Part shown: positions 23,403 through 64,000 of the stretch, piece after piece
How the letters are laid out: the number at the start of each line of letters is the position of its first letter
How positions within the stretch are numbered: position 1 is the first letter of the stretch
From: Heloderma charlesbogerti
Lineage: Eukaryota; Chordata; Lepidosauria; Squamata; Helodermatidae
Direction: 5' to 3'
Assembly: GCA_026122225.1 (NCBI GenBank)
Contig: JANEZZ010001505.1
Location: 124,001 to 188,000 of the forward strand
DNA: 64,000 bases
The notes under the pieces: model-generated
What the model was told of the DNA's origin: nothing
Databases searched by the model: none
Seen by the model: only the letters and a program-made list of their open reading frames with translations
Made by a program: the position numbers and the translations under genes

Positions 23403-24093
23403 CTAGAAAGTGAGGACATTTTTTGCCTGTTTTCCTATAACATTAGGATTTTGTGCTTAAAATATCTATGAATTGACACGAATTTGTTACGTGCACCTTT
23501 TTGGGGAGGACAGGGGCAGTACCCTGCCCGACCACACACAGTTTCAAGACCACATGGGTTTATTCTAGTGCCAGTCTCAATATCCCCACACCACCAAATC
23601 CATCTTCAGATTTATGAATACTTGTATTGAAAACATATATTTAAAAAAAAATCTGATGCCAGATTAAGTGCCTATTGGGCAGCATAGAAATGTAATAACT
23701 GAATTAATTAAATGAATTCCAGCAGTGGTCAGGGCTACTAGTGGGCAAGACTAGAGCCAAAAGTGGCAGGGCACCCCTTTGTTCTCTCTCTGCCACACAC
23801 TTTCACCCCATTTTCCCCCTTCTTGTCCCAGGCATGAAATTAGGTTGCATGTAGCCACTGGCTGCTCACCTCTGGCTTCAAGCCTGCTCTTGGACATATG
23901 CAATATTATATTGCAACAAAGCAGGGTAGTTCAAGGGCATTTGTTGTGATTTGTAAACACATCATAATAACCAGAGGTGCAGTGGACTGCAACTTCGGTG
24001 TTAGGGGGGCAGGTGTAGCCGATTGCCCCTACCCACCCATCAAAAGGGTGCCCCTGTTCCAACGCTAACACATACAGATATATTGAGTCATAC

Positions 24094-24213
24094 CTATCCG
24101 TAACAGATCTCCAGGCACCACGCTAACATTGATACCGATTCCAGAGGCCATGAGGACACGCTTTCTCCTACTGTTGCTGGATGATCCGTTGTTAGGCTCC
24201 TGAAACCTTCGCT
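24094..24213 (-). CDS. ADAMTSL3: ADAMTSL3-like exon: inter-Ig linker and start of the Ig domain
   Basis: A 120-bp exon with acceptor CTTCTTCCCAG before 24,213 and donor ATAG/GTATGA after 24,094. It encodes ERRFQEPNNGSSSNSRRKR, then VLMASGIGINVSVVPGDLLRIG. Phases are 2 in and 1 out, matching both neighbours (Glu at the 5' join, Gly at the 3' join). Sites of interest are NGS and NVS sequons and a basic RRKR run that resembles a proprotein-convertase site. An identical copy is on the plus strand at 63,300-63,419. Confidence 0.87.
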   Translation of the reverse strand, partial: SEGFRSLTTDHPATVGESVSSWPLESVSMLAWCLEICYG

Positions 24214-24551
24214 CTGGGAAGAAAGGGGGGGAGGGAAAACTAAGCATGACATCCCAGTGTTTCCCAGGAATAAAAGTGATGGGATATTTTAACCAGACAG
24301 CCAAACGTTTGAATGCTCCTGAACAGCTCTTTGGATCCTGGCCCATATTTTTATGCCATTTCTCCTTCCCAGTGCAAAGTGTGTGTGTGTGGGGGGGGAG
24401 GCCAACCTTGATCACCATTACCTTATGCAGTTTGCTTCCCCAAACTGCTTCAGAAAATGACTTCGTACAGGGCTGGATCCAGGTTTGGGGGTTACAGGTG
24501 GCCCACCCATTCCAGGAGGCAGCCCCACAACTCTTATCTCACCCCCCCTTC

Positions 24552-25356
24552 CAGTGGTGTAGTGGAGACAGGGCTCACAGAGATGCAGTCCCAGCACTAT
24601 TGTTTATTGGCAGGGACGCTGACATCCCCCTCATACTCCCCAGTTCCCTCTGAGCTTAGCTGAAATCTTCACAGTAGCTGGGGGGAAATGAATTTTCCCA
24701 GCAACAATTAGGGATGTATGGATTGTGTGACATTTGTTCCATCCATGGAGTGTCAAGTGTCTTTTGTTCCATTGTCCACCCACTGACAGAACTGGATTTT
24801 TTTTTCATATTTGTGAAAATATGCATGTGCAAAAATGTGCAAATTCCCCCCAAATCTGCACTTTCCCCCAAAATACGCATTTTCATGCTTTAGCCTATGA
24901 GGGAAACACACATTTGGGGCAGGTTTTTAAATATTTTGAGTAGTTTTCTACGGCAAAATTTGCGCAAAATTTCCGAAAGCTAGAAAAACAGTGCACGTCT
25001 GTGGAATCTGCCCATACAGGGGAAACGGCAGTCCACTGCAGAATCTACAGGTCAGATTCATAAAAATCCAAACTCATTTGGTTCCACTGCAGATTTCTCC
25101 GACATCCCTAACAACAATACATTGTTCTCTGCTGTAACGCAAAGTATTTGTGGGTGGCTTGATTTTGAATGGGCAATGAAGGCCTCTTAGCTTTACAAAA
25201 AATACCTTGCTCTTGGAGGAGATGACAACTGCTAGAACTGGTTTGGGGATATGGAACAACCCAGCTGCCTGAATTTTTGGACTCACCTTATGGGGATGGA
25301 TATGGGGGCTTTCATGATGAGCGCCTCCACTTCCAAAATGTACCACTACCCCACTG
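24552..25356 (-). mobile_element. Element X, copy 2, carrying a MITE
   Basis: The ends are CAGTGGTGTAGTGG on the left and an inverted CCACTACCCCACTG on the right. It is 405 bp without the MITE at 24,709-25,110, matching copy 1 at 17,547. The mirror copy is at 62,157-62,961. Confidence 0.65.
24709..25110. mobile_element. TAGGGATG-family hAT-type MITE, copy 2
   Basis: The ends are TAGGGATGT and ACATCCCTA, with 8-bp flanks GCAACAAT and ACAACAAT. The body carries AAATTTGCGCAAAATTTCC and GTGGAATCTGCC blocks shared with 30,458-30,870. Mirror at 62,403-62,804. Confidence 0.82.
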
Positions 25357-25567
25357 CCTTCATCACATTAAAATCTGCTTTCAGCAGATGGGTGAGCAGG
25401 TGGAACTTTCCCTCAGATGTCAGCAGGGAGGAAGGGGAGGCAGCAGTAGCAACGAGACATAAGCACTGGGGACCAAGCAAAAGCGTGGCTCAGGCCGAAG
25501 ACAGAAAGGCCCTCAGCAGCTGCCCAATGGTGCCACCTGGCACTGCTGGTCCTGAGCGAGTACTTGC

Positions 25568-25750
25568 CAGCCAATCGAAGAACAGTTGTGGCTACGGCTC
25601 GTCCAAGAGCGTTGGTGGCTGTGCAAATGTAAGTCCCGGTGTCTTCACCTGAAACATTCCTCAGGAGTAAGGAACCATTTGCAACTGTGAAAACGTCATT
25701 TCTTGGGGAGCTTTCATTTTTAAACCATGTGACCTCAGGTTGGGGAAGAC
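25568..25750 (-). CDS. ADAMTSL3: ADAMTSL3-like exon: Ig-like C2 domain
   Basis: A 183-bp exon with acceptor TTTCTCCCCAG before 25,750. It encodes GLPQPEVTWFKNESS, ANGSLLLRNVSGEDTGTYIC and TATNALGRAVATTVLRLA, the Trp-to-Cys part of an I-set/C2 Ig domain. The first Ig Cys must be in the exon before. KNES, ANGS and RNVS are sequons. The donor is TG/GCAAGT, a GC rather than GT donor. Using it gives phase 1 and joins perfectly to the exon at 24,213 (LRLA-E-RRF). The nearest GT, four bases on, gives the wrong phase. No earlier exon of this gene is visible anywhere upstream in the window. Confidence 0.9.
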
Positions 25751-25970
25751 CTGGGGAGAAAGCAGTATGATACAAAAGAGTATTAAAACATTTGTGAAAA
25801 GTACAATTTTTTATTATGAAATTGGGCGATGGTGGTGGAATAGCTAGGGCTTACGATTAGGATCATCACAGCCTGTTAAGGAATATTTAGTTGGTTAATT
25901 GTCTGCTGTACCTTTTAACTAATGGTCTTCAAGTACATTTGCATATTAGCAAAAGCTCAATATAGGTGTC

Positions 25971-26623
25971 TGTCAGGATTCCCCTTATGGCCTAGACCCC
26001 ATGAGCAACCCCTTAAGGATCTCTTGCCTCCTTAAGAATCCCACTTTCCTTCTTTTAAACTTCTCCTTCCCAGTAACGTGGGGTTTAGGCTGTAGGAATG
26101 GGGTGATTGACACAGAGATACAGAGTTTAACCACAATAGTTTATTGGTAAATTAAAGCAAGGAAATCACAACTAAAGGTATTTACACAATAGAGTTGAGT
26201 GATACAAAAGGCATTAACAGAAAATAAAAGTTACAGAAATGCATGTTCCTGTACCCTAGCTGTAGTTAGACTTCGCCAGGCTGCTTCTTTCTGCTCTCTC
26301 TTCAGACTCTGGTCTCCCCAACTCTGATCTTACTGCTCTGTTCTTTCTGACTCTCTCTTTTTATACCCTCCTCCCCGAAAACTGAAAATACTGCTTCAAA
26401 CCTGAAGATATGAAACTTAACTGAGGAAATGAAACTGAAATGTAACCAGGGAAATGAAACTGGGTTAGGGGGTTGGACTCGATGGCCTTGTAAGCCCCTT
26501 CCAACCCTACTATTCTATGATTCTATGAAACTGCTCCTCTCAGAGATACCCCCTCCCAACAAAAAACCCCAGGCCTCTAGGCCTGACCGTCTTCCTTTCC
26601 TCTGTAGGCCTCAAACCTTCACA
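25971..26623 (-). mobile_element. Solo LTR of a second family
   Basis: On the minus strand it starts TGTGAAGGTTTGAGG at 26,623 and ends GGGGAATCCTGACA at 25,971. The flanks are GACAT and GACAC in LTR orientation. It holds a plausible core promoter (TATAAAAAG near 26,360) and CAATAAACT polyadenylation signal (near 26,145). A 66-bp CR1 fragment lies inside it at 26,462-26,527. Mirror at 60,890-61,542. Confidence 0.78.
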
Positions 26624-27138
26624 ATGTCTTTTTGAGACACTGAAGGAAGTGTGAGATAACTTATTAAGTTATTACACTAACCCAAACTACTGTTCATTGT
26701 CATAAGGAAAATACCCAAACTATTTTGTTAAGTGGCCTTAACAGTCAAGCCCAAGGATTACAATATCTCCGCAAATCCCATTTTGCAAGAAGTGTACGAG
26801 AACATGAGCAAGCGGGGGGGATGGACGTTGTGCAGTTCTCCAGTTTTCCCAAGTGATAGGAAGCTACAGAGGCAACCTTTTACAGATCAATTTCTTTGTG
26901 AGAGAGAACTTAAGATTTATAGCAATTTTTTAAAAAAACAAAACAAATACAACTGGAACACAAGAAAGTGGGCAAGCTTCTTGACAGACAGTTCCTTTGC
27001 ATGCAGTCACAGGAATAATGTGATGTGAGGCAAAAGTACTGAGTAACTAAGGCCACAATGAATTAATTTAAGTACAAGATCTGCAACATTAACATGTGCA
27101 GGACATTTTGATATCAATCTCTGAAGCTGTGAGGTGAT
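26624..27138. other. Unannotated sequence
   Basis: There is no exon or repeat I can name, including the 98-codon plus-strand frame at 26,732. Confidence 0.4.
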
Positions 27139-27589
27139 TCAGACCATATTTCCTTGAGACAAAAACGGGATATTGGGATGACAAAAATGGGACAGATCAA
27201 ACTGAATGTAGGGCGGAAAGAATCTCTATGGGCAGAATGATGGTAGAAATAACAGTAGGATTCACACTCCTGGCTCCCACATGCTGAATGGGGCTTAGCG
27301 GCCGCCTCTTGAATTCTCTGCCACTGCGGACAAGCCAGGGGGCGGCGTCTGATCACCGCTAGCTTAAGAAGCCTGGCCCTGACTGGACAAAGGAAATGGA
27401 ACTTCCTCTTTCGTCACACTAGTAGTTTTACTGCACGCATTGATTAGCGTAGAGCCTTATGATAAACGCGTTGTTTTTTACAAAAAATTAAAAACGGGAC
27501 AAAATTGACATTTATATTACAACGACGGGACGGTTGGGAAATATGAAAAAAACGGTACTGTCCCATTTAAAACAGTACGTATGGTCAGC
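27139..27589. mobile_element. Short DNA transposon with CAGACCATATTT-type ends
   Basis: The left end reads CAGACCATATTTCC. The right end is a diverged inverted copy, ACGTATGGTCAG. Inside are repeated CGGGAC/GTCCCG strings. This arrangement is typical of hAT-type MITEs. The target duplication is unclear. Mirror at 59,924-60,374. Confidence 0.55.
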
Positions 27590-28451
27590 CTACTTATAGG
27601 TAGAGACTAACACAGCTGCTGGGTTGGGCGCAGTCATGCAACTGCCAGTAGCCACACCCTTTCAGGTGTTGAGGGAGGCCCTGCTGAATCACTCGCCCCA
27701 TTCTCCACAGTTCCATTAGGTGAAACAGACTGACCCTGAAGGAAATCCATACCCTGGCCCCTCCCAGGTTCCAGAGCCCTGAGTGCCAAGTCTTGGGAAC
27801 CCTCCATCACTTTCATTGTGCTTCCAAGTGCTCACCAAATTCCTACCTATCCATGTCGTTCCCTGCACAGCTCTGCCAATTGTAACCAACCTATTTAAAG
27901 CATGCCTACCAGCGCTAATCGCTAGCAAACCCACACCAAGGTCATACTGTTAAACCGGTGAAGAAACCTGCACACTTCAGCACATCTGCTTGACAGGCAA
28001 AAAAATTCCCACTCGGATCATGAGCAACCAGCTACCCTTAGAGTGCACGCCCTGATGCAAAGGTGGGCGGGTGCCACAAACTGCAAAGACACCTGGTTTG
28101 GGGTAAGGTAGGATGAAATAAATGTTTAAGCCCTGTGCTATGCCGGCATCATCATGACATGTCTCCATCTCTCTTCTGTGCCTTGCCTCTCTTCGCACGT
28201 GCTGCTCCCGCCTGGATTCCTTGCGGCGGGCAGGCAAGCATGCTTCCTCAGTGCGGTATCAGTTCCCCCCAAAGCAAGCAGCATACACTTGCAGCTGCCC
28301 GGCCAGCCACAAAATATAGATTCTGTCACCTTCACGGGTGGCATTCAGACTGCCAAACAGTTTCTTTCCAACCGAGCACCTCTAGTGAGATGAGTGTGTA
28401 GCGGCCACCAGTTTTAACCATCATGATTCTTTACAGAAACCAGTTCCAAGT
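27590..28451. other. Unannotated sequence
   Basis: Several short GC-rich open frames overlap on both strands with no domain content and no ADAMTSL-like cysteine pattern. Confidence 0.4.
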
Positions 28452-28795
28452 GTTTTAGGGTCCTTGGGCAAGACACCCCCAATGGGCCCTCTGCCTCAAT
28501 GAGTTTACCCTCTCGCCACCATTGTCACCCTCTGCTCTTGCGCCTCCTCCTCTTTCTCATCACTACTGCCACTTGCTTGCTTGACAGACAGGGAGCAAGG
28601 AGGCTGGGGCACCTCCTGCTCCTCCCTCTCACCACTGCTGTTGTCTGGGCCAGAGCAAGAGGCAGGGGAATGAGCAGGCTGCAATGGGGAAGAGGAAGAG
28701 CAAGTCCAGGGGGCTCTTGGCAGTGGGTCCCTGCTGGGGTGCGGGCCCTTGGCAGGTGCCCAACCATGCCTATCCTTCACGGTGGCCCTGAAAGA
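28452..28795. repeat. Three-copy interspersed repeat of unknown class, copy 2
   Basis: It shares GGCAAGACACCCCCAATGGGCC, ACTTGCTTGCTTGACAG and TTGTCTGGGCCAGAGCAAGAG with 14,758 and 32,190. Mirror at 58,718-59,061. Confidence 0.6.
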
Positions 28796-28929
28796 AAACC
28801 TATTAGCCATTACCGAAAGAATAGCCTCGAGAGCCCTTTACCTGGCATGCAACACAGCGGTGTTCCAGTTTCAGTGTCTTGCACATCAGGTGTCCACTGA
28901 CTGGGGTACAGGAAGTGGTTGCAGAGATA

Positions 28930-29510
28930 TGTAGGAAGCTGTCTTACACTGGGTCAGGTTATTTGCTCATCTCGCCCCATAGTGTCTACTCTGACTTGCA
29001 GTTAGGAATGGGTGAGAAATTCATTGGGTTTGCATTTTAATGCAAGTTTACCCAGTTTGCGCCTCCCAGAACCGAATACAATTTGCAGTCAGAAATCCAT
29101 ATGCATCTGAGCTTGCAATGCTTCCCAGAATAAATATATCTGACAAGATGTGCACATTTGGAAAAATGTGCAAAGGAAAAGGCATGCATTTCTAAAATGT
29201 GCACAAATATGCTTTAGTCAACGAGTGCATGCAAACAAAAATGCATACATTTGAAAAATGCACAACTGAAAAATGCATACAAAAATATGTACAAATTCCT
29301 GTGCAAAAAATCCCCCAGCCCAGCTCACATGGAACCAGGGTGGAACAAGCTTGGTGGTAAAAAAAAATGAGAAACTCAACAAGACTGAGCTTGACGTATT
29401 CAGCCATCTCTTGGGCGGAGACCTTTTGTATCACCTGCAACCTGATCTTTTAAATGGAGATATCAGAGATTGAACCTGGGGCCTTCATCATGAAAAGCTA
29501 CAGGTCCTCC
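28930..29510 (-). repeat. tRNA-derived SINE split by an A+T-rich insertion
   Basis: The SINE body (GGAAGCTGTCTTACACTGGG) at 28,930-28,997 resumes near 29,395 with GGAGATATCAGAGATTGAACC. The ~390-bp insert has AAATGCACA/ATGCATAC strings like the TAGGGATG MITEs, but its ends are not clear. Mirror at 58,003-58,583. Confidence 0.5.
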
Positions 29511-30349
29511 CTGTATGAAGTCTAATTATTAAGCCAGGCTGAACATTCTTTTTCACAGATCATTTTGCAAAATTGCTTTATAGGCGATTTCTTCATGATG
29601 TGGAATGATCCCTGAGAGAGGAAGTTTAGCATCTCGGTCAGGAGCTTAGCACTTTTCTGTCCGCACCTCCGGTTTTCTTCTCGGTATAATGTAAACCAGA
29701 CTTAATTTTTGGAGCTAGCTATTTTTATGGAAAATAAAAGTGTCTATCAAAAAGCTATCAGAAAGAAAATCACTCTAACAGGATTGCCACCAATCTGAAC
29801 TTACTCTCTTCAACTCAAAAGCCTATTTTAAAAAAACTGTTAAACAAGTCAACAACATATTAGAAAGAACTAATTTAAATGGCAGATACTATAAATACTG
29901 CAGAGAAACAGCTTCACTCTACTTGGAGAAGACCTCCTGAAATCAGGAAGAGATCTTGTTCCAATCCAGAGCCCCTTTTGTGGTTGCGGCCCAAATACTT
30001 TCAGCCAGGGTTTTGACACCTTTTCATAACATTCTCAGCTAGAGTTAAAATTCTTTAGATGTACTATATTTTCCAAAGCTACGCAGGAAGACCAACTCAC
30101 ACTACACAGAGGTTAAGGAAGCAAGGCTAGAAGAGCCTGAACTAGTTTAAATTACTGCTTAAGGATCAAATCAGGCAGGAATCAGCCACAGAAACAACAA
30201 CATTAGCAATATTAACTATAAGGGTTGCAATCCTCCTGTAGATTTCATGCATGTAAGCCCAACGACTTCAGCACAGCCATGATCACAGGCCTTGAGTTCT
30301 AATTCTGAGGACATTTACTGAAATATCTGGATTCATTTCTGGCCTGTTT
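29511..30349. other. Unannotated sequence
   Basis: I see nothing recognisable except a short LINE-like string, AGAGCTGGTGTTGACC, starting at about 30,364 just beyond it. Confidence 0.4.
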
Positions 30350-30457
30350 TCAAGTTCAATTCAAAGAGCTGGTGTTGACCTTTAAAGCTCTTCCTGGCAT
30401 CGGTCCAGCCAGAGTAGCTGAGGGATCAGCTTTTTTCCATACAAGCCTACTCATGCC

Positions 30458-30870
30458 TAGGGATGTATGGATTGTGTAAAATCCGTACCACCTGCGTTTC
30501 ACAGATTTCAGGCGCCTGTCGTTCCGTCATCTGCCCATCAACAGAATCAGATTTTTTTGTTTCCAAATTTGCACAAATGCGCATTTGGATAAATTTGCAC
30601 GTGCAAAAATGTACAAATTCTCCCCAAATGTGTGTTTCCATGCATTAGCCTATGGGAGAAATGCACATTTTGGGCCAATTTGGGGGGGGGGGGGTTGCAT
30701 AGTTTCCTAAGACGAAATTTGCACACAATTTGGAAAAGTTAGAAAACTGGTCCACAAGTCTGTGGAATCTGCCCGACGGGGGAAAAGCTGGTCCGCTGAG
30801 GAATCCATGGGTTGGATTCAGGAAAATCTGAACTCAATTGTTTCCGTTGTGGATTTCTTTGACATCCCTA
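30458..30870. mobile_element. TAGGGATG-family hAT-type MITE, copy 3
   Basis: The ends are TAGGGATGT and ACATCCCTA, with 8-bp flanks CTCATGCC and CTCATGCT. The body aligns with copy 2 and includes a G-run. Mirror at 56,643-57,055. Confidence 0.83.
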
Positions 30871-30885
30871 CTCATGCTTTAAGGC

Positions 30886-31011
30886 AGTGTTCCCTAACCT
30901 GGTGCCCCCCACATGCGTAGGACTGAAACTCCCATCATTCCCCTCCAGTGGCCACGCTGGCTAGGAATTATGGGAGTTGCAGTCCAACACAAATTGGGGG
31001 ATGCTGCCTTC
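30886..31011. mobile_element. Foldback MITE (CCTCCAGATGT family), copy 3
   Basis: CAGTGTTCCCTAACCTGGTG on the left pairs with a diverged complement at GGGGGATGCTG on the right, enclosing CCCATCATTCCC and GGGAGTTGCAG. Mirror at 56,502-56,627. Confidence 0.5.
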
Positions 31012-31794
31012 AGGTGCCACTCCCTTCACTGGCATGGCAGGTTGGGACTAAGGATGTTTGTGGAATTAGCACTTTGCAAAGCCCAATATGAACTGACCTG
31101 ATCTGCAGCTCCTGGATGAACATATGGATCATAACTTAGTTATCTACCAGCTTCCCGAATGTTCTGACACAGTTGTTGGCTCAATTAATCAGTATCAAAA
31201 TGCATGCAGAAATGCATATTTTGAGACAAATGCATTGAGAAATGCACATTTTGAGAAAAAATATGTTTAAGATACGTAATTAAAAATGTATTTATATGCA
31301 CATTTTTGAATGGAATAAAACATTCACAGATTTAAAAGGCAATCATATGGCCCCTAGAAAATGTCTGAGGGGCCTTAGGATCCTGGGGATTTTCTCCTCT
31401 GAGACCACAGACAGAGCTATTTCCTGGGGTGGGGGGAATCCCCACTCAGATTTCTACCCCTCTCAGCCACCACGGAAAGCTCCACAGTGGCTCATCTCCT
31501 GAGGTCGGTGTCACAACACTGGAAGAGGACAGGGAGGGAGAAAAGGGAGCGTGCCAGTGCAGGGACAGAAGAGGCCATGAATTCACCAGAACCACAAACC
31601 TCTCTGCCTCCACCCTTGCTAGATGGGCTCAAATACATCCAAGGAAGATGCCCCACTGCCCTTCAGGCCCTGCCTGCCTCTTGCTGGCAGGGTTTAGAAC
31701 AGACTGTAGGATTGCACTCTGTATGTGGAAACAGATGGACTTATGAGTGAACATATGCAAAAGTGACACAGACTAGAAACAGACTGATTTGTCC
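31012..31794. other. Unannotated sequence with MITE-like A+T-rich part
   Basis: 31,195-31,310 holds repeated AAATGCACATTTTGAG strings like those in the TAGGGATG MITEs. The remainder is unremarkable and has no exon. Confidence 0.35.
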
Positions 31795-32150
31795 ATCCCT
31801 GGTGGGGAATAAGGAAAGGGCCTTCTCAGTGGTGGCACCACAACTCCAGTATGCTCTCCCAGTATGCTCTCCGCAGGGAGGCTTCCCTGGCCTTGCTGTC
31901 ATTTCAACACCAGGCCCTTTTAATTTTCTCAGATATTTTATCTGCTTGTTTTTTCTCCTGTGTTCAGTCTTTATGCTGCTCTTTCATTTCTTGCTTTGAT
32001 TTTATAGCTGTTACTCTTTTATTGTATGTACATGTTATGTCTTTTTTTTTTTCTTTTTGTGTGTTGTTGTTTTTTATGTTTCACTGTAAGCCACGCCAAG
32101 AAATTTTTTGAAGGGCAGGTTACGAAGACTCTAAATACATATATCAATAA
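31795..32150 (+). mobile_element. L2-type LINE 3' end
   Basis: It has the typical closing wording AAGGCCTTCTCAGTGGTGGC-like near 31,820, GGGAGGCTTCCCTGGCC, then CACTGTAAGCCACGCCAAG and an AATACATATATCAATAAATG tail. It is 5'-truncated. Mirror at 55,363-55,718 on the minus strand. Confidence 0.6.
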
Positions 32151-32189
32151 ATGTAACCTAGAGGGGGACAATGTTTTTTTAAAAGAGCA

Positions 32190-32495
32190 GTAAGCAGCTT
32201 AAGAAAGGCAAGGCCCCCTCCCTCAGTGAGTCCACCTTCTCACTGCCATTGTCACCAGCTGCTATTGCTCCCCAGCCTCTTTCTCCTCATTCCTCCCACT
32301 TGCTTGCTTGACAGGCAGAGAGCCAGTGAGCATTTACTGCTACTCTTTCTCACACCACCCTTGTCTGGGCCAGAGCAAGAGGCAGGGGAACAAGCAGGTT
32401 GCCATGGTGAAGAGGAGGAGCAAGCCTGGGGGGCTCTTGTCATTGGGCCCCTCCTGGGGTGTGGGCCCTCGGCAGGTGCCCAAGCATGCCTACTC
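32190..32495. repeat. Three-copy interspersed repeat of unknown class, copy 3
   Basis: It shares ACTTGCTTGCTTGACAGGCAG and GGTGTGGGCCCTCGGCAGG with the other copies and ends next to a (GA)n tract at 32,501-32,517. Mirror at 55,018-55,323. Confidence 0.58.
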
Positions 32496-32517
32496 TTTGA
32501 GAGAGAGAGAGAGAGAG

Positions 32518-33111
32518 TTTTAATCACATATTTTCAATGTAATCAGTGAACACATACAAATATTCTAACAAATAACAAACATTACATAGGAAATTCAATT
32601 ATAGTCAATTGGGGATCACAAGAGTTTCAATGTATTAATAACCTTATATTTATCCACAGAAGTTCTTCGGGGGTTTAAGATTCAGTTGTAATTATCGAAA
32701 TTTATCTCTCCACCTCTGCCCATGACATGATGGTGGTTTTCTCTGGGAACTTTGTTTGTTGATAAGGTCTACGAACTTATATCAGATTGTATGGAAGGTG
32801 TCAAGGACTCTTTTTTTTGTCTTTGTGCCCTTATCTGTTTAGTCTTGATGACGGCCCTAACAACAACACATATGGGTCTCCCGCATCACATGCAGTTTGG
32901 CCCTTTAAACAAGGATTAGACATATTGATGGAGGATTGGTGGCTGATGGGTATTGGCCATGACAGCTAAACTGAACCTCCATGTACCGGGGGGTGGGGGA
33001 TATACCTGTGAATACCAGCTGTTGAGCGCTATTGTCTTTATGTCTTCACAGAGGTATCTTGCTGGCCACTTTTGACAAGAGTGCTGGACAAGGTAGTTCT
33101 TGCCCTAATGC
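32518..33111. other. Unannotated A+T-rich sequence
   Basis: There is no recognisable exon or named repeat. Confidence 0.4.
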
Positions 33112-33248
33112 AGGAGAGGGGAACATGCGGCCTTCCTGATGTGGTTTAGACTCCAACTCCCTTCAGCCCCAGCCAGCATGACTAATGGGCAGGGACGATG
33201 GGAGTTGTAGTCTAACAACACCTGGAGGGCCATAGGTTCTCCACACCT
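33112..33248. mobile_element. Foldback MITE (CCTCCAGATGT family), copy 4
   Basis: GAGGGGAACATGCGGCCTTC on the left pairs with CTGGAGGGCCATAGGTTCTCC on the right, enclosing CTCCAACTCCC and GGGAGTTGTAG. Mirror at 54,265-54,401. Confidence 0.6.
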
Positions 33249-33344
33249 GACCCAATCCAAGAAGGCTTCCCCCCTCCTTTTACAAAATTACTGAGTTTCA
33301 AAAGCAGGACAGGAAGGAGGAGAAAAGGCTCAGCCTTCACATGG

Positions 33345-33545
33345 TGACATTCAACATTATATGCCATTGTCATATACTGAGTTAGACCAGTGGCCCATCT
33401 AAGCGCAGTATTGTTGACACTGACTGGCAGCAGCTCTCCAGGGCTTCAGGCAGGAATTTTCCCAGCCCTACCTGGAGATGCTGGGGATTGAACCTGGGAC
33501 CGTCTGCATGCAAAAGACCTCAGCTCAAGGGCTTAGCCCCTCCCC
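33345..33545 (-). repeat. tRNA-derived SINE
   Basis: The best preserved member here. In reverse it carries a tRNA-like head with B-box GGTTCAATCCC (33,484-33,494) and body CCAGGTAGGGCTGGGAAAA. It is a retroposon, not a tRNA gene, because no acceptor stem or anticodon arm folds. Mirror at 53,968-54,168. Confidence 0.72.
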
Positions 33546-37922: not shown

Positions 37923-37934
37923 CCCTTGAAAATA

Positions 37935-49483: not shown

Positions 49484-49486
<3 letters not shown>

Positions 49487-49526: not shown

Positions 49527-49528
<2 letters not shown>

Positions 49529-52761: not shown

Positions 52762-53102
52762 TACGGATGAAGGAGGAATTTGTTCAGTTCACTTTTTTCA
52801 CATTTTCAAACCAATATGCAGACTGGAACTCAGTTATCCTTTGAAATTTGCCCTCTTCCAAATTTTGCAGTGGAGTTCTCCAATCAAAAAATGTGTAGAA
52901 AAATGTGTATATTAAGGAGAAGTGCATACAAAAATGTGTATATGGATTCTGTTAGGAACACTACATGTATTAGGAGAAGTGCACACACAAATATGTGTGC
53001 AGATTTTAATGCAAACTTTTTTTTTAAGTTCTCAAAATTCAGGATGAAATGAACTTAGACTGGAAAAATGAAAAACTGAAAGAAACTGATTTTCTATCTC
53101 TA
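52762..53102. mobile_element. Mirror copy of the TAGRGAT-family MITE
   Basis: Reverse complement of 34,411-34,751. Confidence 0.65.
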
Positions 53103-53967
53103 ATTTTCAGTAGAAGACACTGGAAAAGAGATTATATTTAGAATTAACGTTACCCATTGAAAATGGGCCCTGTTTTCAGCCAATCCTTTCTTGCATAGAG
53201 CCCTAGATTTAATTTACCTGACACATTCCTTGCCCTCTCCTACCAGTCTGATGATTTGCGTTTCAGCATGCACGTTCCACACAAGTGTAATTTAGAAAGC
53301 GCAAGGTCTGTTTGATGCTAACCATATGAGATACTGCTGTTTTGCTTGCATTTACCACTGCCTACTGAAGTATATCATGAACCCTGTACAACTTGCTGGG
53401 TTTGTTCATTTCTCCTGTGTGAGGTTTCCAACGGTACTGATGAAATAAAACAAATGAATGAGCTGCACAGCAGAATTGCAAGAATTGTGGCCCTGACATT
53501 TTACATAGAAAAGATTTTCTATCTAAAAAAAGACTTTTATATAGCAAACACACACACACACACACACACTGCATGTAGACAGAAACATGTATTTATTTCC
53601 TCCCAAAATGTGCACTGCAGGGAGCCCATAAAATGAACTATGCTTAAAAACAAATTTCCGCCAACCTTAAAAGCTTGGTAAAATGTTACACACTATAAAA
53701 GATTTGGGCTTACTAATTATTCTTAAAGTATTCCCAACCCCCAGCTCCAAAATATCCTGTAGGATTTTATGAAATATTTTGTATTTGCCATCAAGGAGCA
53801 ACTTCAAGCCAAACTAGAACAAGCTACGTCTTTGGAGAGCACTCTTTTAGGAAAGCCTATCTTTCAAAATCATTCTCACCCTTAATTATACTGATTTTTG
53901 AAATGTTGACCTGATACAGGCAATGGGTTTTCCATGAAATGGTTTTGTTAATACCAAATGTTATTTA

Positions 53968-54168
53968 GGGGAGGGGCTAAGCCCTTGAGCTGAGGTCTTT
54001 TGCATGCAGACGGTCCCAGGTTCAATCCCCAGCATCTCCAGGTAGGGCTGGGAAAATTCCTGCCTGAAGCCCTGGAGAGCTGCTGCCAGTCAGTGTCAAC
54101 AATACTGCGCTTAGATGGGCCACTGGTCTAACTCAGTATATGACAATGGCATATAATGTTGAATGTCA
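53968..54168 (+). repeat. Mirror copy of the tRNA-derived SINE
   Basis: Plus-strand orientation, with B-box GGTTCAATCCC at 54,019-54,029. Confidence 0.72.
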
Positions 54169-55362
54169 CCATGTGAAGGCTGAGCCTTTTCTCCTCCTTC
54201 CTGTCCTGCTTTTGAAACTCAGTAATTTTGTAAAAGGAGGGGGGAAGCCTTCTTGGATTGGGTCAGGTGTGGAGAACCTATGGCCCTCCAGGTGTTGTTA
54301 GACTACAACTCCCATCGTCCCTGCCCATTAGTCATGCTGGCTGGGGCTGAAGGGAGTTGGAGTCTAAACCACATCAGGAAGGCCGCATGTTCCCCTCTCC
54401 TGCATTAGGGCAAGAACTACCTTGTCCAGCACTCTTGTCAAAAGTGGCCAGCAAGATACCTCTGTGAAGACATAAAGACAATAGCGCTCAACAGCTGGTA
54501 TTCACAGGTATATCCCCCACCCCCCGGTACATGGAGGTTCAGTTTAGCTGTCATGGCCAATACCCATCAGCCACCAATCCTCCATCAATATGTCTAATCC
54601 TTGTTTAAAGGGCCAAACTGCATGTGATGCGGGAGACCCATATGTGTTGTTGTTAGGGCCGTCATCAAGACTAAACAGATAAGGGCACAAAGACAAAAAA
54701 AAGAGTCCTTGACACCTTCCATACAATCTGATATAAGTTCGTAGACCTTATCAACAAACAAAGTTCCCAGAGAAAACCACCATCATGTCATGGGCAGAGG
54801 TGGAGAGATAAATTTCGATAATTACAACTGAATCTTAAACCCCCGAAGAACTTCTGTGGATAAATATAAGGTTATTAATACATTGAAACTCTTGTGATCC
54901 CCAATTGACTATAATTGAATTTCCTATGTAATGTTTGTTATTTGTTAGAATATTTGTATGTGTTCACTGATTACATTGAAAATATGTGATTAAAACTCTC
55001 TCTCTCTCTCTCTCAAAGAGTAGGCATGCTTGGGCACCTGCCGAGGGCCCACACCCCAGGAGGGGCCCAATGACAAGAGCCCCCCAGGCTTGCTCCTCCT
55101 CTTCACCATGGCAACCTGCTTGTTCCCCTGCCTCTTGCTCTGGCCCAGACAAGGGTGGTGTGAGAAAGAGTAGCAGTAAATGCTCACTGGCTCTCTGCCT
55201 GTCAAGCAAGCAAGTGGGAGGAATGAGGAGAAAGAGGCTGGGGAGCAATAGCAGCTGGTGACAATGGCAGTGAGAAGGTGGACTCACTGAGGGAGGGGGC
55301 CTTGCCTTTCTTAAGCTGCTTACTGCTCTTTTAAAAAAACATTGTCCCCCTCTAGGTTACAT

Positions 55363-55718
55363 TTATTGATATATGTATTTAGAGTCTTCGTAACCTGCCC
55401 TTCAAAAAATTTCTTGGCGTGGCTTACAGTGAAACATAAAAAACAACAACACACAAAAAGAAAAAAAAAAAGACATAACATGTACATACAATAAAAGAGT
55501 AACAGCTATAAAATCAAAGCAAGAAATGAAAGAGCAGCATAAAGACTGAACACAGGAGAAAAAACAAGCAGATAAAATATCTGAGAAAATTAAAAGGGCC
55601 TGGTGTTGAAATGACAGCAAGGCCAGGGAAGCCTCCCTGCGGAGAGCATACTGGGAGAGCATACTGGAGTTGTGGTGCCACCACTGAGAAGGCCCTTTCC
55701 TTATTCCCCACCAGGGAT
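55363..55718 (-). mobile_element. Mirror copy of the L2-type LINE 3' end
   Basis: Reverse complement of 31,795-32,150. Confidence 0.6.
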
Positions 55719-56642
55719 GGACAAATCAGTCTGTTTCTAGTCTGTGTCACTTTTGCATATGTTCACTCATAAGTCCATCTGTTTCCACATACAGAGTGCA
55801 ATCCTACAGTCTGTTCTAAACCCTGCCAGCAAGAGGCAGGCAGGGCCTGAAGGGCAGTGGGGCATCTTCCTTGGATGTATTTGAGCCCATCTAGCAAGGG
55901 TGGAGGCAGAGAGGTTTGTGGTTCTGGTGAATTCATGGCCTCTTCTGTCCCTGCACTGGCACGCTCCCTTTTCTCCCTCCCTGTCCTCTTCCAGTGTTGT
56001 GACACCGACCTCAGGAGATGAGCCACTGTGGAGCTTTCCGTGGTGGCTGAGAGGGGTAGAAATCTGAGTGGGGATTCCCCCCACCCCAGGAAATAGCTCT
56101 GTCTGTGGTCTCAGAGGAGAAAATCCCCAGGATCCTAAGGCCCCTCAGACATTTTCTAGGGGCCATATGATTGCCTTTTAAATCTGTGAATGTTTTATTC
56201 CATTCAAAAATGTGCATATAAATACATTTTTAATTACGTATCTTAAACATATTTTTTCTCAAAATGTGCATTTCTCAATGCATTTGTCTCAAAATATGCA
56301 TTTCTGCATGCATTTTGATACTGATTAATTGAGCCAACAACTGTGTCAGAACATTCGGGAAGCTGGTAGATAACTAAGTTATGATCCATATGTTCATCCA
56401 GGAGCTGCAGATCAGGTCAGTTCATATTGGGCTTTGCAAAGTGCTAATTCCACAAACATCCTTAGTCCCAACCTGCCATGCCAGTGAAGGGAGTGGCACC
56501 TGAAGGCAGCATCCCCCAATTTGTGTTGGACTGCAACTCCCATAATTCCTAGCCAGCGTGGCCACTGGAGGGGAATGATGGGAGTTTCAGTCCTACGCAT
56601 GTGGGGGGCACCAGGTTAGGGAACACTGCCTTAAAGCATGAG

Positions 56643-57055
56643 TAGGGATGTCAAAGAAATCCACAACGGAAACAATTGAGTTCAGATTTTCCTGAATCCA
56701 ACCCATGGATTCCTCAGCGGACCAGCTTTTCCCCCGTCGGGCAGATTCCACAGACTTGTGGACCAGTTTTCTAACTTTTCCAAATTGTGTGCAAATTTCG
56801 TCTTAGGAAACTATGCAACCCCCCCCCCCCCAAATTGGCCCAAAATGTGCATTTCTCCCATAGGCTAATGCATGGAAACACACATTTGGGGAGAATTTGT
56901 ACATTTTTGCACGTGCAAATTTATCCAAATGCGCATTTGTGCAAATTTGGAAACAAAAAAATCTGATTCTGTTGATGGGCAGATGACGGAACGACAGGCG
57001 CCTGAAATCTGTGAAACGCAGGTGGTACGGATTTTACACAATCCATACATCCCTA
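56643..57055. mobile_element. Mirror copy of the TAGGGATG MITE (copy 3)
   Basis: Reverse complement of 30,458-30,870, same ends and flanks. Confidence 0.83.
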
Positions 57056-58717
57056 GGCATGAGTAGGCTTGTATGGAAAAAAGCTGATCCCTCAGCTACT
57101 CTGGCTGGACCGATGCCAGGAAGAGCTTTAAAGGTCAACACCAGCTCTTTGAATTGAACTTGAAAACAGGCCAGAAATGAATCCAGATATTTCAGTAAAT
57201 GTCCTCAGAATTAGAACTCAAGGCCTGTGATCATGGCTGTGCTGAAGTCGTTGGGCTTACATGCATGAAATCTACAGGAGGATTGCAACCCTTATAGTTA
57301 ATATTGCTAATGTTGTTGTTTCTGTGGCTGATTCCTGCCTGATTTGATCCTTAAGCAGTAATTTAAACTAGTTCAGGCTCTTCTAGCCTTGCTTCCTTAA
57401 CCTCTGTGTAGTGTGAGTTGGTCTTCCTGCGTAGCTTTGGAAAATATAGTACATCTAAAGAATTTTAACTCTAGCTGAGAATGTTATGAAAAGGTGTCAA
57501 AACCCTGGCTGAAAGTATTTGGGCCGCAACCACAAAAGGGGCTCTGGATTGGAACAAGATCTCTTCCTGATTTCAGGAGGTCTTCTCCAAGTAGAGTGAA
57601 GCTGTTTCTCTGCAGTATTTATAGTATCTGCCATTTAAATTAGTTCTTTCTAATATGTTGTTGACTTGTTTAACAGTTTTTTTAAAATAGGCTTTTGAGT
57701 TGAAGAGAGTAAGTTCAGATTGGTGGCAATCCTGTTAGAGTGATTTTCTTTCTGATAGCTTTTTGATAGACACTTTTATTTTCCATAAAAATAGCTAGCT
57801 CCAAAAATTAAGTCTGGTTTACATTATACCGAGAAGAAAACCGGAGGTGCGGACAGAAAAGTGCTAAGCTCCTGACCGAGATGCTAAACTTCCTCTCTCA
57901 GGGATCATTCCACATCATGAAGAAATCGCCTATAAAGCAATTTTGCAAAATGATCTGTGAAAAAGAATGTTCAGCCTGGCTTAATAATTAGACTTCATAC
58001 AGGGAGGACCTGTAGCTTTTCATGATGAAGGCCCCAGGTTCAATCTCTGATATCTCCATTTAAAAGATCAGGTTGCAGGTGATACAAAAGGTCTCCGCCC
58101 AAGAGATGGCTGAATACGTCAAGCTCAGTCTTGTTGAGTTTCTCATTTTTTTTTACCACCAAGCTTGTTCCACCCTGGTTCCATGTGAGCTGGGCTGGGG
58201 GATTTTTTGCACAGGAATTTGTACATATTTTTGTATGCATTTTTCAGTTGTGCATTTTTCAAATGTATGCATTTTTGTTTGCATGCACTCGTTGACTAAA
58301 GCATATTTGTGCACATTTTAGAAATGCATGCCTTTTCCTTTGCACATTTTTCCAAATGTGCACATCTTGTCAGATATATTTATTCTGGGAAGCATTGCAA
58401 GCTCAGATGCATATGGATTTCTGACTGCAAATTGTATTCGGTTCTGGGAGGCGCAAACTGGGTAAACTTGCATTAAAATGCAAACCCAATGAATTTCTCA
58501 CCCATTCCTAACTGCAAGTCAGAGTAGACACTATGGGGCGAGATGAGCAAATAACCTGACCCAGTGTAAGACAGCTTCCTACATATCTCTGCAACCACTT
58601 CCTGTACCCCAGTCAGTGGACACCTGATGTGCAAGACACTGAAACTGGAACACCGCTGTGTTGCATGCCAGGTAAAGGGCTCTCGAGGCTATTCTTTCGG
58701 TAATGGCTAATAGGTTT

Positions 58718-59061
58718 TCTTTCAGGGCCACCGTGAAGGATAGGCATGGTTGGGCACCTGCCAAGGGCCCGCACCCCAGCAGGGACCCACTGCCAAGAGC
58801 CCCCTGGACTTGCTCTTCCTCTTCCCCATTGCAGCCTGCTCATTCCCCTGCCTCTTGCTCTGGCCCAGACAACAGCAGTGGTGAGAGGGAGGAGCAGGAG
58901 GTGCCCCAGCCTCCTTGCTCCCTGTCTGTCAAGCAAGCAAGTGGCAGTAGTGATGAGAAAGAGGAGGAGGCGCAAGAGCAGAGGGTGACAATGGTGGCGA
59001 GAGGGTAAACTCATTGAGGCAGAGGGCCCATTGGGGGTGTCTTGCCCAAGGACCCTAAAAC
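58718..59061. repeat. Mirror copy of the unknown three-copy repeat
   Basis: Reverse complement of 28,452-28,795. Confidence 0.6.
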
Positions 59062-59923
59062 ACTTGGAACTGGTTTCTGTAAAGAATCATGATGGTTAAA
59101 ACTGGTGGCCGCTACACACTCATCTCACTAGAGGTGCTCGGTTGGAAAGAAACTGTTTGGCAGTCTGAATGCCACCCGTGAAGGTGACAGAATCTATATT
59201 TTGTGGCTGGCCGGGCAGCTGCAAGTGTATGCTGCTTGCTTTGGGGGGAACTGATACCGCACTGAGGAAGCATGCTTGCCTGCCCGCCGCAAGGAATCCA
59301 GGCGGGAGCAGCACGTGCGAAGAGAGGCAAGGCACAGAAGAGAGATGGAGACATGTCATGATGATGCCGGCATAGCACAGGGCTTAAACATTTATTTCAT
59401 CCTACCTTACCCCAAACCAGGTGTCTTTGCAGTTTGTGGCACCCGCCCACCTTTGCATCAGGGCGTGCACTCTAAGGGTAGCTGGTTGCTCATGATCCGA
59501 GTGGGAATTTTTTTGCCTGTCAAGCAGATGTGCTGAAGTGTGCAGGTTTCTTCACCGGTTTAACAGTATGACCTTGGTGTGGGTTTGCTAGCGATTAGCG
59601 CTGGTAGGCATGCTTTAAATAGGTTGGTTACAATTGGCAGAGCTGTGCAGGGAACGACATGGATAGGTAGGAATTTGGTGAGCACTTGGAAGCACAATGA
59701 AAGTGATGGAGGGTTCCCAAGACTTGGCACTCAGGGCTCTGGAACCTGGGAGGGGCCAGGGTATGGATTTCCTTCAGGGTCAGTCTGTTTCACCTAATGG
59801 AACTGTGGAGAATGGGGCGAGTGATTCAGCAGGGCCTCCCTCAACACCTGAAAGGGTGTGGCTACTGGCAGTTGCATGACTGCGCCCAACCCAGCAGCTG
59901 TGTTAGTCTCTACCTATAAGTAG

Positions 59924-60374
59924 GCTGACCATACGTACTGTTTTAAATGGGACAGTACCGTTTTTTTCATATTTCCCAACCGTCCCGTCGTTGTAATATA
60001 AATGTCAATTTTGTCCCGTTTTTAATTTTTTGTAAAAAACAACGCGTTTATCATAAGGCTCTACGCTAATCAATGCGTGCAGTAAAACTACTAGTGTGAC
60101 GAAAGAGGAAGTTCCATTTCCTTTGTCCAGTCAGGGCCAGGCTTCTTAAGCTAGCGGTGATCAGACGCCGCCCCCTGGCTTGTCCGCAGTGGCAGAGAAT
60201 TCAAGAGGCGGCCGCTAAGCCCCATTCAGCATGTGGGAGCCAGGAGTGTGAATCCTACTGTTATTTCTACCATCATTCTGCCCATAGAGATTCTTTCCGC
60301 CCTACATTCAGTTTGATCTGTCCCATTTTTGTCATCCCAATATCCCGTTTTTGTCTCAAGGAAATATGGTCTGA
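59924..60374. mobile_element. Mirror copy of the CAGACCATATTT-end transposon
   Basis: Reverse complement of 27,139-27,589. Confidence 0.55.
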
Positions 60375-60889
60375 ATCACCTCACAGCTTCAGAGATTGAT
60401 ATCAAAATGTCCTGCACATGTTAATGTTGCAGATCTTGTACTTAAATTAATTCATTGTGGCCTTAGTTACTCAGTACTTTTGCCTCACATCACATTATTC
60501 CTGTGACTGCATGCAAAGGAACTGTCTGTCAAGAAGCTTGCCCACTTTCTTGTGTTCCAGTTGTATTTGTTTTGTTTTTTTAAAAAATTGCTATAAATCT
60601 TAAGTTCTCTCTCACAAAGAAATTGATCTGTAAAAGGTTGCCTCTGTAGCTTCCTATCACTTGGGAAAACTGGAGAACTGCACAACGTCCATCCCCCCCG
60701 CTTGCTCATGTTCTCGTACACTTCTTGCAAAATGGGATTTGCGGAGATATTGTAATCCTTGGGCTTGACTGTTAAGGCCACTTAACAAAATAGTTTGGGT
60801 ATTTTCCTTATGACAATGAACAGTAGTTTGGGTTAGTGTAATAACTTAATAAGTTATCTCACACTTCCTTCAGTGTCTCAAAAAGACAT

Positions 60890-61542
60890 TGTGAAGGTTT
60901 GAGGCCTACAGAGGAAAGGAAGACGGTCAGGCCTAGAGGCCTGGGGTTTTTTGTTGGGAGGGGGTATCTCTGAGAGGAGCAGTTTCATAGAATCATAGAA
61001 TAGTAGGGTTGGAAGGGGCTTACAAGGCCATCGAGTCCAACCCCCTAACCCAGTTTCATTTCCCTGGTTACATTTCAGTTTCATTTCCTCAGTTAAGTTT
61101 CATATCTTCAGGTTTGAAGCAGTATTTTCAGTTTTCGGGGAGGAGGGTATAAAAAGAGAGAGTCAGAAAGAACAGAGCAGTAAGATCAGAGTTGGGGAGA
61201 CCAGAGTCTGAAGAGAGAGCAGAAAGAAGCAGCCTGGCGAAGTCTAACTACAGCTAGGGTACAGGAACATGCATTTCTGTAACTTTTATTTTCTGTTAAT
61301 GCCTTTTGTATCACTCAACTCTATTGTGTAAATACCTTTAGTTGTGATTTCCTTGCTTTAATTTACCAATAAACTATTGTGGTTAAACTCTGTATCTCTG
61401 TGTCAATCACCCCATTCCTACAGCCTAAACCCCACGTTACTGGGAAGGAGAAGTTTAAAAGAAGGAAAGTGGGATTCTTAAGGAGGCAAGAGATCCTTAA
61501 GGGGTTGCTCATGGGGTCTAGGCCATAAGGGGAATCCTGACA
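60890..61542 (+). mobile_element. Mirror copy of the second-family solo LTR
   Basis: It reads in LTR orientation: TGTGAAGG start, TATAAAAAG promoter at about 61,149, CAATAAACT signal near 61,368, CCTGACA end. Flanks are GACAT and GACAC. A CR1 fragment lies at 60,986-61,051. Confidence 0.78.
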
Positions 61543-61762
61543 GACACCTATATTGAGCTTTTGCTAATATGCAAATGTACTTGAAGACCATTAGTTAAAA
61601 GGTACAGCAGACAATTAACCAACTAAATATTCCTTAACAGGCTGTGATGATCCTAATCGTAAGCCCTAGCTATTCCACCACCATCGCCCAATTTCATAAT
61701 AAAAAATTGTACTTTTCACAAATGTTTTAATACTCTTTTGTATCATACTGCTTTCTCCCCAG

Positions 61763-61945
61763 GTCTTCCCCAACCTGAGGTCACATGGTTTAAAAATGAA
61801 AGCTCCCCAAGAAATGACGTTTTCACAGTTGCAAATGGTTCCTTACTCCTGAGGAATGTTTCAGGTGAAGACACCGGGACTTACATTTGCACAGCCACCA
61901 ACGCTCTTGGACGAGCCGTAGCCACAACTGTTCTTCGATTGGCTG
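61763..61945 (+). CDS. ADAMTSL3: Duplicate ADAMTSL3-like Ig exon (inverted copy)
   Basis: Identical to the exon at 25,568-25,750 but on the plus strand. Acceptor TTTCTCCCCAG ends at 61,762. The donor is TG/GCAAGT at 61,946. It encodes the Ig segment with EVTWFKNESS and GEDTGTYIC. If real, this belongs to a second, divergently oriented partial gene whose next exon follows at 63,300. No TSP1, PLAC or N-terminal exons of this copy are in the window. As with the left copy, no upstream exon is found between here and the palindrome centre. Confidence 0.88.
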
Positions 61946-62156
61946 GCAAGTACTCGCTCAGGACCAGCAGTGCCAGGTGGCACCATTGGGCAGCTGCTGA
62001 GGGCCTTTCTGTCTTCGGCCTGAGCCACGCTTTTGCTTGGTCCCCAGTGCTTATGTCTCGTTGCTACTGCTGCCTCCCCTTCCTCCCTGCTGACATCTGA
62101 GGGAAAGTTCCACCTGCTCACCCATCTGCTGAAAGCAGATTTTAATGTGATGAAGG

Positions 62157-62961
62157 CAGTGGGGTAGTGGTACATTTTGGAAGTGGAGGCGCTCATCATG
62201 AAAGCCCCCATATCCATCCCCATAAGGTGAGTCCAAAAATTCAGGCAGCTGGGTTGTTCCATATCCCCAAACCAGTTCTAGCAGTTGTCATCTCCTCCAA
62301 GAGCAAGGTATTTTTTGTAAAGCTAAGAGGCCTTCATTGCCCATTCAAAATCAAGCCACCCACAAATACTTTGCGTTACAGCAGAGAACAATGTATTGTT
62401 GTTAGGGATGTCGGAGAAATCTGCAGTGGAACCAAATGAGTTTGGATTTTTATGAATCTGACCTGTAGATTCTGCAGTGGACTGCCGTTTCCCCTGTATG
62501 GGCAGATTCCACAGACGTGCACTGTTTTTCTAGCTTTCGGAAATTTTGCGCAAATTTTGCCGTAGAAAACTACTCAAAATATTTAAAAACCTGCCCCAAA
62601 TGTGTGTTTCCCTCATAGGCTAAAGCATGAAAATGCGTATTTTGGGGGAAAGTGCAGATTTGGGGGGAATTTGCACATTTTTGCACATGCATATTTTCAC
62701 AAATATGAAAAAAAAATCCAGTTCTGTCAGTGGGTGGACAATGGAACAAAAGACACTTGACACTCCATGGATGGAACAAATGTCACACAATCCATACATC
62801 CCTAATTGTTGCTGGGAAAATTCATTTCCCCCCAGCTACTGTGAAGATTTCAGCTAAGCTCAGAGGGAACTGGGGAGTATGAGGGGGATGTCAGCGTCCC
62901 TGCCAATAAACAATAGTGCTGGGACTGCATCTCTGTGAGCCCTGTCTCCACTACACCACTG
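62157..62961 (+). mobile_element. Mirror copy of element X with its MITE
   Basis: The plus-strand orientation shows CAGTGGGGTAGTGG at the start and CCACTACACCACTG at the end, with the MITE at 62,403-62,804. Confidence 0.65.
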
Positions 62962-63299
62962 GAAGGGGGGGTGAGATAAGAGTTGTGGGGCTGCCTCCTG
63001 GAATGGGTGGGCCACCTGTAACCCCCAAACCTGGATCCAGCCCTGTACGAAGTCATTTTCTGAAGCAGTTTGGGGAAGCAAACTGCATAAGGTAATGGTG
63101 ATCAAGGTTGGCCTCCCCCCCCACACACACACACTTTGCACTGGGAAGGAGAAATGGCATAAAAATATGGGCCAGGATCCAAAGAGCTGTTCAGGAGCAT
63201 TCAAACGTTTGGCTGTCTGGTTAAAATATCCCATCACTTTTATTCCTGGGAAACACTGGGATGTCATGCTTAGTTTTCCCTCCCCCCCTTTCTTCCCAG

Positions 63300-63419
63300 A
63301 GCGAAGGTTTCAGGAGCCTAACAACGGATCATCCAGCAACAGTAGGAGAAAGCGTGTCCTCATGGCCTCTGGAATCGGTATCAATGTTAGCGTGGTGCCT
63401 GGAGATCTGTTACGGATAG
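63300..63419 (+). CDS. ADAMTSL3: Duplicate ADAMTSL3-like linker/Ig exon (inverted copy)
   Basis: Identical to 24,094-24,213. Acceptor TCTTCCCAG ends at 63,299 and donor GTATGA starts at 63,420. It contains the SRRKR run and the INVSVV strand, in phase with the exon at 61,763. By mirror arithmetic the next Ig exon would lie at 64,111-64,298 if the arm continues, beyond the window. Confidence 0.87.
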   Translation, partial: SEGFRSLTTDHPATVGESVSSWPLESVSMLAWCLEICYG

Positions 63420-64000
63420 GTATGACTCAATATATCTGTATGTGTTAGCGTTGGAACAGGGGCACCCTTTTGATGGGTGGGTAGGGGCAATCGGCTACAC
63501 CTGCCCCCCTAACACCGAAGTTGCAGTCCACTGCACCTCTGGTTATTATGATGTGTTTACAAATCACAACAAATGCCCTTGAACTACCCTGCTTTGTTGC
63601 AATATAATATTGCATATGTCCAAGAGCAGGCTTGAAGCCAGAGGTGAGCAGCCAGTGGCTACATGCAACCTAATTTCATGCCTGGGACAAGAAGGGGGAA
63701 AATGGGGTGAAAGTGTGTGGCAGAGAGAGAACAAAGGGGTGCCCTGCCACTTTTGGCTCTAGTCTTGCCCACTAGTAGCCCTGACCACTGCTGGAATTCA
63801 TTTAATTAATTCAGTTATTACATTTCTATGCTGCCCAATAGGCACTTAATCTGGCATCAGATTTTTTTTTAAATATATGTTTTCAATACAAGTATTCATA
63901 AATCTGAAGATGGATTTGGTGGTGTGGGGATATTGAGACTGGCACTAGAATAAACCCATGTGGTCTTGAAACTGTGTGTGGTCGGGCAGGGTACTGCCCC

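What the first reader, a model, noticed from the sequence alone, without database searches (positions are those of the whole stretch)
23513..64000. 20-kb palindrome with no visible divergence between arms
The two arms of at least 20,074 bp are reverse complements around a 340-bp centre. Coordinates of all landmarks sum to 87,513, so there is no net indel anywhere. Open frames spread over the whole arm translate identically in both copies. Such identity needs a very recent event, ongoing gene conversion as in sex-chromosome palindromes, or an artefact. Possible artefacts are a fold-back long read, an amplification chimera, or an assembler path using one unitig in both directions. I favour an artefact or an assembly-graph error, but a real palindrome would be a notable genome structure.
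Basis: partly seen in the sequence, partly recalled or inferred. Interest (0 to 1): 0.9.

Follow-up and report, generated by a model that had tools for sequence, protein, structure and literature searches.

The report
Lizard contig folded back by assembly
A 94-kb mirror image with perfectly identical arms is really present in this contig, but it is most likely an assembly error in what is likely a lizard genome: the contig appears to have folded back on itself inside a gene, ADAMTSL3, whose first exons lie near the end of a different contig.

Summary
The window is bases 124,001-188,000 of a 214,707-bp contig (C1320) in a 2.30-Gb genome of 3,246 contigs. The palindrome has arms of 46,781 bp with no mismatch and no indel around a 340-bp centre, and the second arm runs to the last base of the contig. 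The whole window lies inside it. SAXO2 on the contig is 89% identical to that of the lizard Elgaria. The left arm carries the 3' exons of one conserved gene, ADAMTSL3 (residues 1335-1747 of the Elgaria protein, plus a PLAC exon), on the minus strand; the fold point lies upstream of them. The gene's first exons (residues 6-245) lie on another contig, C1732, running towards that contig's end, 20.9 kb away. So the sequence that should follow the fold point is the rest of ADAMTSL3, not an inverted copy of its 3' end. The palindrome is therefore most likely a fold-back assembly artefact at a contig end; a fold-back read as the trigger is inferred. I had no raw reads, so a real inverted duplication breaking one ADAMTSL3 allele is not excluded (about 5%). 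It is not evidence for a sex-chromosome-type palindrome.

The parts
1..43586 (+). left arm of the palindrome (starts 3,195 bases before the window, at contig position 120,806)
   Evidence: exact reverse-complement match to the right arm over 46,781 bp
43587..43926 (.). 340-bp centre (spacer), the only non-palindromic stretch
   Evidence: genome search at E up to 10 found only itself (1 candidate)
43927..64000 (-). right arm (inverted copy); continues beyond the window to the last base of the contig, 214,707
25566..25754 (-). ADAMTSL3 exon, residues 1335-1397 of the Elgaria protein (Ig domain), the most 5' ADAMTSL3 exon found on the contig
24089..24214 (-). ADAMTSL3 exon, residues 1397-1438
23197..23406 (-). 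ADAMTSL3 exon, residues 1436-1507
14292..14492 (-). ADAMTSL3 exon, residues 1507-1573 (TSP1 domain)
10771..10974 (-). ADAMTSL3 exon, residues 1570-1637 (TSP1 domain)
8099..8248 (-). ADAMTSL3 exon, residues 1634-1682
1762..1983 (-). ADAMTSL3 exon, residues 1674-1747 (TSP1 domain), 99% identical to Elgaria
1206..1295 (-). ADAMTSL3 terminal exon, PLAC domain
   Evidence: Pfam PLAC, E 2.5e-8; mirror copy at contig 210,218-210,307
61759..61947 (+). mirror copy in the right arm of the residues 1335-1397 exon
63299..63424 (+). mirror copy in the right arm of the residues 1397-1438 exon

Best explanation
The palindrome is real in the assembled sequence but is most likely an assembly fold-back: the contig reaches a 340-bp junction that likely lies in an intron of ADAMTSL3 and from there is repeated in reverse until it ends, instead of continuing into the missing middle of that gene. 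Shown: the perfect 46,781-bp arms, the right arm running to the last base of the contig, only 3' exons of ADAMTSL3 found on this contig, and its 5' exons near the outward end of contig C1732. Inferred: that a palindromic (fold-back, missed-adapter or otherwise chimeric) read joined the contig end to its own reverse complement, that the assembler walked back along the same reads, and that consensus then made both arms identical.
For: (1) The right arm has no outer flank: it ends at the contig's last base while still pairing perfectly. (2) There are zero differences in 46,781 bp; at the density in human Y palindrome P6 (49 differences in 110-kb arms, passages of PMC3723533) about 21 would be expected. 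(3) ADAMTSL3 appears as one gene cut at the fold point. Residues 1335-1747 plus PLAC lie on C1320, minus strand, with the 5' direction facing the centre; residues 6-245 lie on C1732, plus strand, at 2,721,611-2,893,729 of 2,914,613 bp, running towards that contig's end. The Elgaria record holds ADAMTSL3 as one 1,747-aa protein; in Phrynosoma and Phrynocephalus the SAXO2 match and the ADAMTSL3-like match (all annotated only as hypothetical proteins) carry consecutive locus tags. (4) Three arm stretches were searched in the genome (window 20,000-24,000; window 41,000-43,586; contig 120,001-124,500). Matches over the whole stretch, or up to the contig end, were only within C1320; all other listed matches were partial, under 600 bases and 67-98% identical (40 candidates scored in each). 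(5) Nothing marks the outer arm boundary at 120,806: no repeat edge by eye in 600 bases on each side, and no second flank among the scored candidates. (6) Fold-back reads are a documented artefact: 0.55-0.6% of ONT genomic reads, one example with about 2 kb between the arms, able to tangle assembly graphs (PMC12870357, Results and Discussion read, Conclusions in passage). Inverted duplications in a gorilla Y assembly, attributed to palindromic reads, were absent after read correction (PMC6218980, passages).
Against: No reads, depth or assembly graph were available. The 340-bp centre matches no adapter I recalled and is only weakly atypical in composition: 18-25 of 274 held-out windows score as low. 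[quoted passage not shown] the centre here is long and not a simple repeat, and the platform is unknown. A real palindrome collapsed in an assembly graph could also yield identical arms and a contig ending at the arm boundary, so points 1 and 2 alone do not decide. The middle of ADAMTSL3 (residues 246-1334) matched only the paralogue on C495, so the true continuation was not found (27 of 362 candidates scored). C1732's last 2 kb shows only repeat-type matches to C1320, 65-97% identical and at most 368 bases.
Confidence: 0.92

Rival explanations
1. A real, very recent inverted duplication of about 47 kb exists on one haplotype of the sequenced animal and breaks ADAMTSL3 on that copy; the assembler could not get past the second arm.
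For: The centre matches only itself in the genome and is not recognisable as adapter; a collapsed real palindrome would also end at the arm boundary; the ADAMTSL3 exons read without stops in both arms for 6 of 7 mirror pairs, the seventh match running past its exon into stops.
Against: No scored contig match carries the arm's outer end joined to a different flank (40 of 15,807 candidates scored); it would place the break in a gene that is a single conserved gene in other lizards; no difference between arms.
Confidence: 0.05
2. A long-lived palindrome kept identical by gene conversion, as on sex chromosomes.
For: Arm identity and length lie in the range used to define such palindromes (larger than 8 kb and at least 98%, PMC11168930 passages).
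Confidence: 0.02
3. A palindromic molecule made by whole-genome amplification before sequencing.
For: Such chimeras give the same structure (PMC6218980 passages; PMC13265396 passages).
Against: No sign in the sequence separates it from a fold-back read; arms of 46.8 kb from one molecule would need a very long amplified molecule. It is a sub-type of the artefact explanation.
Confidence: 0.01

Closest known systems
Fold-back (inverted palindromic) long-read artefacts (Breakinator paper, PMC12870357)
   Same: near-perfect symmetry around a short unmatched centre; reported to be able to tangle assembly graphs
   Different: here seen in an assembled contig, not in a read; most reported cases have little or no sequence between the arms; read evidence not available
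Inverted duplications in assemblies attributed to palindromic reads (Pacasus, PMC6218980)
   Same: inverted duplications in assembled sequence that were absent when palindromic reads were split
   Different: that data set was whole-genome amplified; the library type here is unknown
Sex-chromosome palindromes (human Y P1-P8, primate X)
   Same: long arms with near-identical sequence in inverted orientation
   Different: no outer flank on one side, no arm differences, no complete gene pair found, very short centre, sex linkage not shown

Membership tests
Fold-back assembly artefact | palindromic copy with no unique flank beyond the second arm | tested here: met
   right arm ends at the contig's last base
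Fold-back assembly artefact | arms identical, because both come from the same sequence | tested here: met
   0 differences in 46,781 bp, (also expected of a collapsed real palindrome)
Fold-back assembly artefact | true continuation of the chromosome lies on another contig | tested here: inconclusive
   ADAMTSL3 5' exons lie on C1732 near its outward end, but the sequence joining them to C1320 (residues 246-1334) was not found
Fold-back assembly artefact | most reads cross the junction without folding; arm depth half per copy | not testable with these tools
   no reads available
Fold-back assembly artefact | adapter sequence in the centre (some cases only) | tested here: inconclusive
   no significant match to four recalled adapters, both strands, 300 shuffles each; the best, 14 of 15 bases of the SMRTbell loop, is reached by 40 of 300 shuffles
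Sex-chromosome-type palindrome | arms larger than 8 kb and at least 98% identity | tested here: met
   46,781 bp, 100%; definition from PMC11168930 passages
Sex-chromosome-type palindrome | both arms bounded by unique flanks | tested here: not met
   no sequence beyond the right arm; no other contig with the arm's outer end among the scored candidates
Sex-chromosome-type palindrome | located on a sex chromosome | tested here: inconclusive
   gene content and published Z homology argue against it, partly from recall; sex linkage not measured
Sex-chromosome-type palindrome | complete gene copies in both arms | tested here: inconclusive
   only the 3' part of ADAMTSL3 (residues 1335-1747 plus PLAC) was found; a full gene scan of the arms was not done

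The most novel reading that the evidence does not exclude
A real, newly arisen 47-kb inverted duplication with a 340-bp spacer sits inside ADAMTSL3 on one haplotype of the sequenced lizard, giving two head-to-head 3' gene halves and an unusually long, perfectly identical palindrome outside a sex chromosome.
Probability: 0.05. Interest if true: 0.45.

Novelty: not a real feature. Interest (0 to 1): 0.08.

Why it matters
Taken at face value, this contig would give a false giant palindrome, a false duplication of the ADAMTSL3 3' exons and an extra copy of a BovB-like element. It is also a worked example of weighing palindrome versus fold-back without reads: follow one conserved gene through the fold point and ask where its other half lies.

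Tried and rejected
Adapter in the centre: four adapter sequences recalled from memory, both strands, none significant against 300 shuffles each. Centre as a noisy copy of itself or of the neighbouring sequence: best scores within the shuffled range (300 and 20 shuffles). Centre composition: low-ranking when the model was trained on the tested windows too (5-18 of 492 as low; CpG ratio reached by 5.5% of windows), weaker when held out (18-25 of 274), so I do not lean on it. Rfam on the window: 0 matches. C2744 and C509 as the ADAMTSL3 5' half: first suspected from a spacer-domain pair 78% identical over 54 residues; dropped because I recalled this sequence type as ADAMTS16/18, and the later ADAMTSL3 search listed neither. 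Other contigs from the TSP1 search (100 matches, 150 of 368 candidates scored): I compared exons of C300, C454, C1831, C1330 and C174, at most about 40% identical to the C495 paralogue exons over 50 residues or more, dropped. Search for SH3GL3 by its BAR domain: asked, never answered. Focused search for ADAMTSL3 residues in the 246-1334 gap: asked, never answered. Paper searches: searches found nothing; the listings and the passages gave nothing used here beyond SH3GL3 and ADAMTSL3 lying in one human region.
Full report
WHAT IS THERE. The window is G000:C1320:124,001-188,000 in a genome of 2,302,168,690 bases in 3,246 contigs. C1320 is 214,707 bp. Over the whole contig the arms are 120,806-167,586 and 167,927-214,707, 46,781 bp each, exact reverse complements. 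The contig is thus 120,805 bp single, one arm, 340 bp, and the same arm inverted, which stops at the contig's last base. Of 20 contigs taken at even number steps, 10 are longer than C1320.

SURROUNDINGS. A 4-kb piece of the arm, the innermost 2.6 kb, and 4.5 kb across the outer boundary were each searched in the genome. Matches over the whole stretch, or up to the contig end, are only to C1320 itself; the other listed matches are partial, under 600 bases and 67-98% identical, as expected of repeats (40 of 21,749, 734 and 15,807 candidates scored). Among these no contig carries the outer end of the arm next to a different flank. Position 120,806 shows no repeat edge by eye in 600 bases on each side. 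The centre matches only itself in the genome at E up to 10, matches none of four recalled adapters, and is only weakly unusual in composition when tested on held-out windows.

GENES. The single part of the contig carries EFL1 exons on the minus strand (contig 43,130-44,260, PDB 5anb, E 9e-138; 41,973-42,422 and 43,130-44,260 in Pfam) and SAXO2 on the plus strand (Pfam SAXO1-2, E 1e-57). SAXO2's best relative is Elgaria multicarinata webbii, 89% identical over 88% of the query, so the organism is likely an anguimorph lizard. The left arm carries, on the minus strand, the last part of ADAMTSL3: in a local tblastn with the 1,747-aa Elgaria protein, residues 1336-1747 fall in seven exons, and a PLAC exon follows, each with a mirror copy in the right arm. 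Between the residue-1335 exon (contig 149,754) and the centre (167,587) no further ADAMTSL3 exon was found.

THE TEST. If the palindrome is real and fixed, ADAMTSL3 is cut in two in this animal. If it is a fold-back, the rest of ADAMTSL3 should lie elsewhere, at a contig end pointing outward. A search of the genome with the Elgaria protein gave 27 matches (27 of 362 candidates scored): 14 on C1320, as 7 mirror pairs; 4 on C1732 (residues 6-65, 60-108, 122-201 and 201-245, 73-95% identical, plus strand, 2,721,611-2,893,729; the first match contains one stop); and 9 on C495, at 32-77% identity, which is a paralogue, probably ADAMTSL1. C1732 has 2,914,613 bp, so its last listed ADAMTSL3 exon lies 20.9 kb from the end towards which the gene runs. 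Residues 246-1334 matched only the paralogue; they may lie in an unassembled gap or on an unscored contig. A focused search for residues in that gap did not complete. The last 2 kb of C1732 shows only repeat-type matches to C1320.

READING. The sequence that belongs after the fold point is, by inference, the rest of ADAMTSL3. The inverted copy sits in its place, at a contig end, with no flank and no difference between arms. This is what a palindromic read, or a unitig walked in both directions, would produce. Literature: fold-back reads make up 0.55-0.6% of ONT genomic reads and virtually none of the PacBio HiFi reads tested; one shown example holds about 2 kb between the arms, but typically fewer than half have more than 11 bases there; they can tangle assembly graphs (PMC12870357; Results and Discussion read, Conclusions seen in passage). 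Inverted duplications in a published gorilla Y assembly were attributed to palindromic reads and were not seen after correction (PMC6218980, passages). The sequencing platform and assembler of this genome are unknown to me.

VERDICT. Observation confirmed and larger than reported; most likely an assembly fold-back; low interest.

Noticed in passing
window 2867-6037 (+): An uninterrupted 1,056-aa frame that I recall as the endonuclease and reverse transcriptase of a BovB/RTE type LINE (no call names it); another copy at contig C1320 15,951-18,775 is 97.5% identical over 2,825 bases, which suggests recent activity. Its inverted copy in the right arm inflates the copy count.
   Followed up: partly
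contig C495, 5,990,337-6,253,882 (+): A paralogue of ADAMTSL3, probably ADAMTSL1, spread over about 260 kb, with TSP1 exons and a PLAC exon.
   Followed up: partly
contig C1320, 41,973-44,260 (-) and 104,616-118,359 (+): EFL1 exons and SAXO2 in the single-copy part of the contig next to ADAMTSL3; the order resembles human 15q25 and the SAXO1-ADAMTSL1 pair on human 9p (human positions recalled). An open frame at 48,411-48,977 (-) also looked like EFL1 to me but had no Pfam match.
   Followed up: partly
contigs C2744 167,553-167,717 (-) and C509 1,737,697-1,737,864 (-): ADAMTS spacer-domain exons, 78% identical to each other, probably the ADAMTS16/18 pair (name recalled).
   Followed up: no
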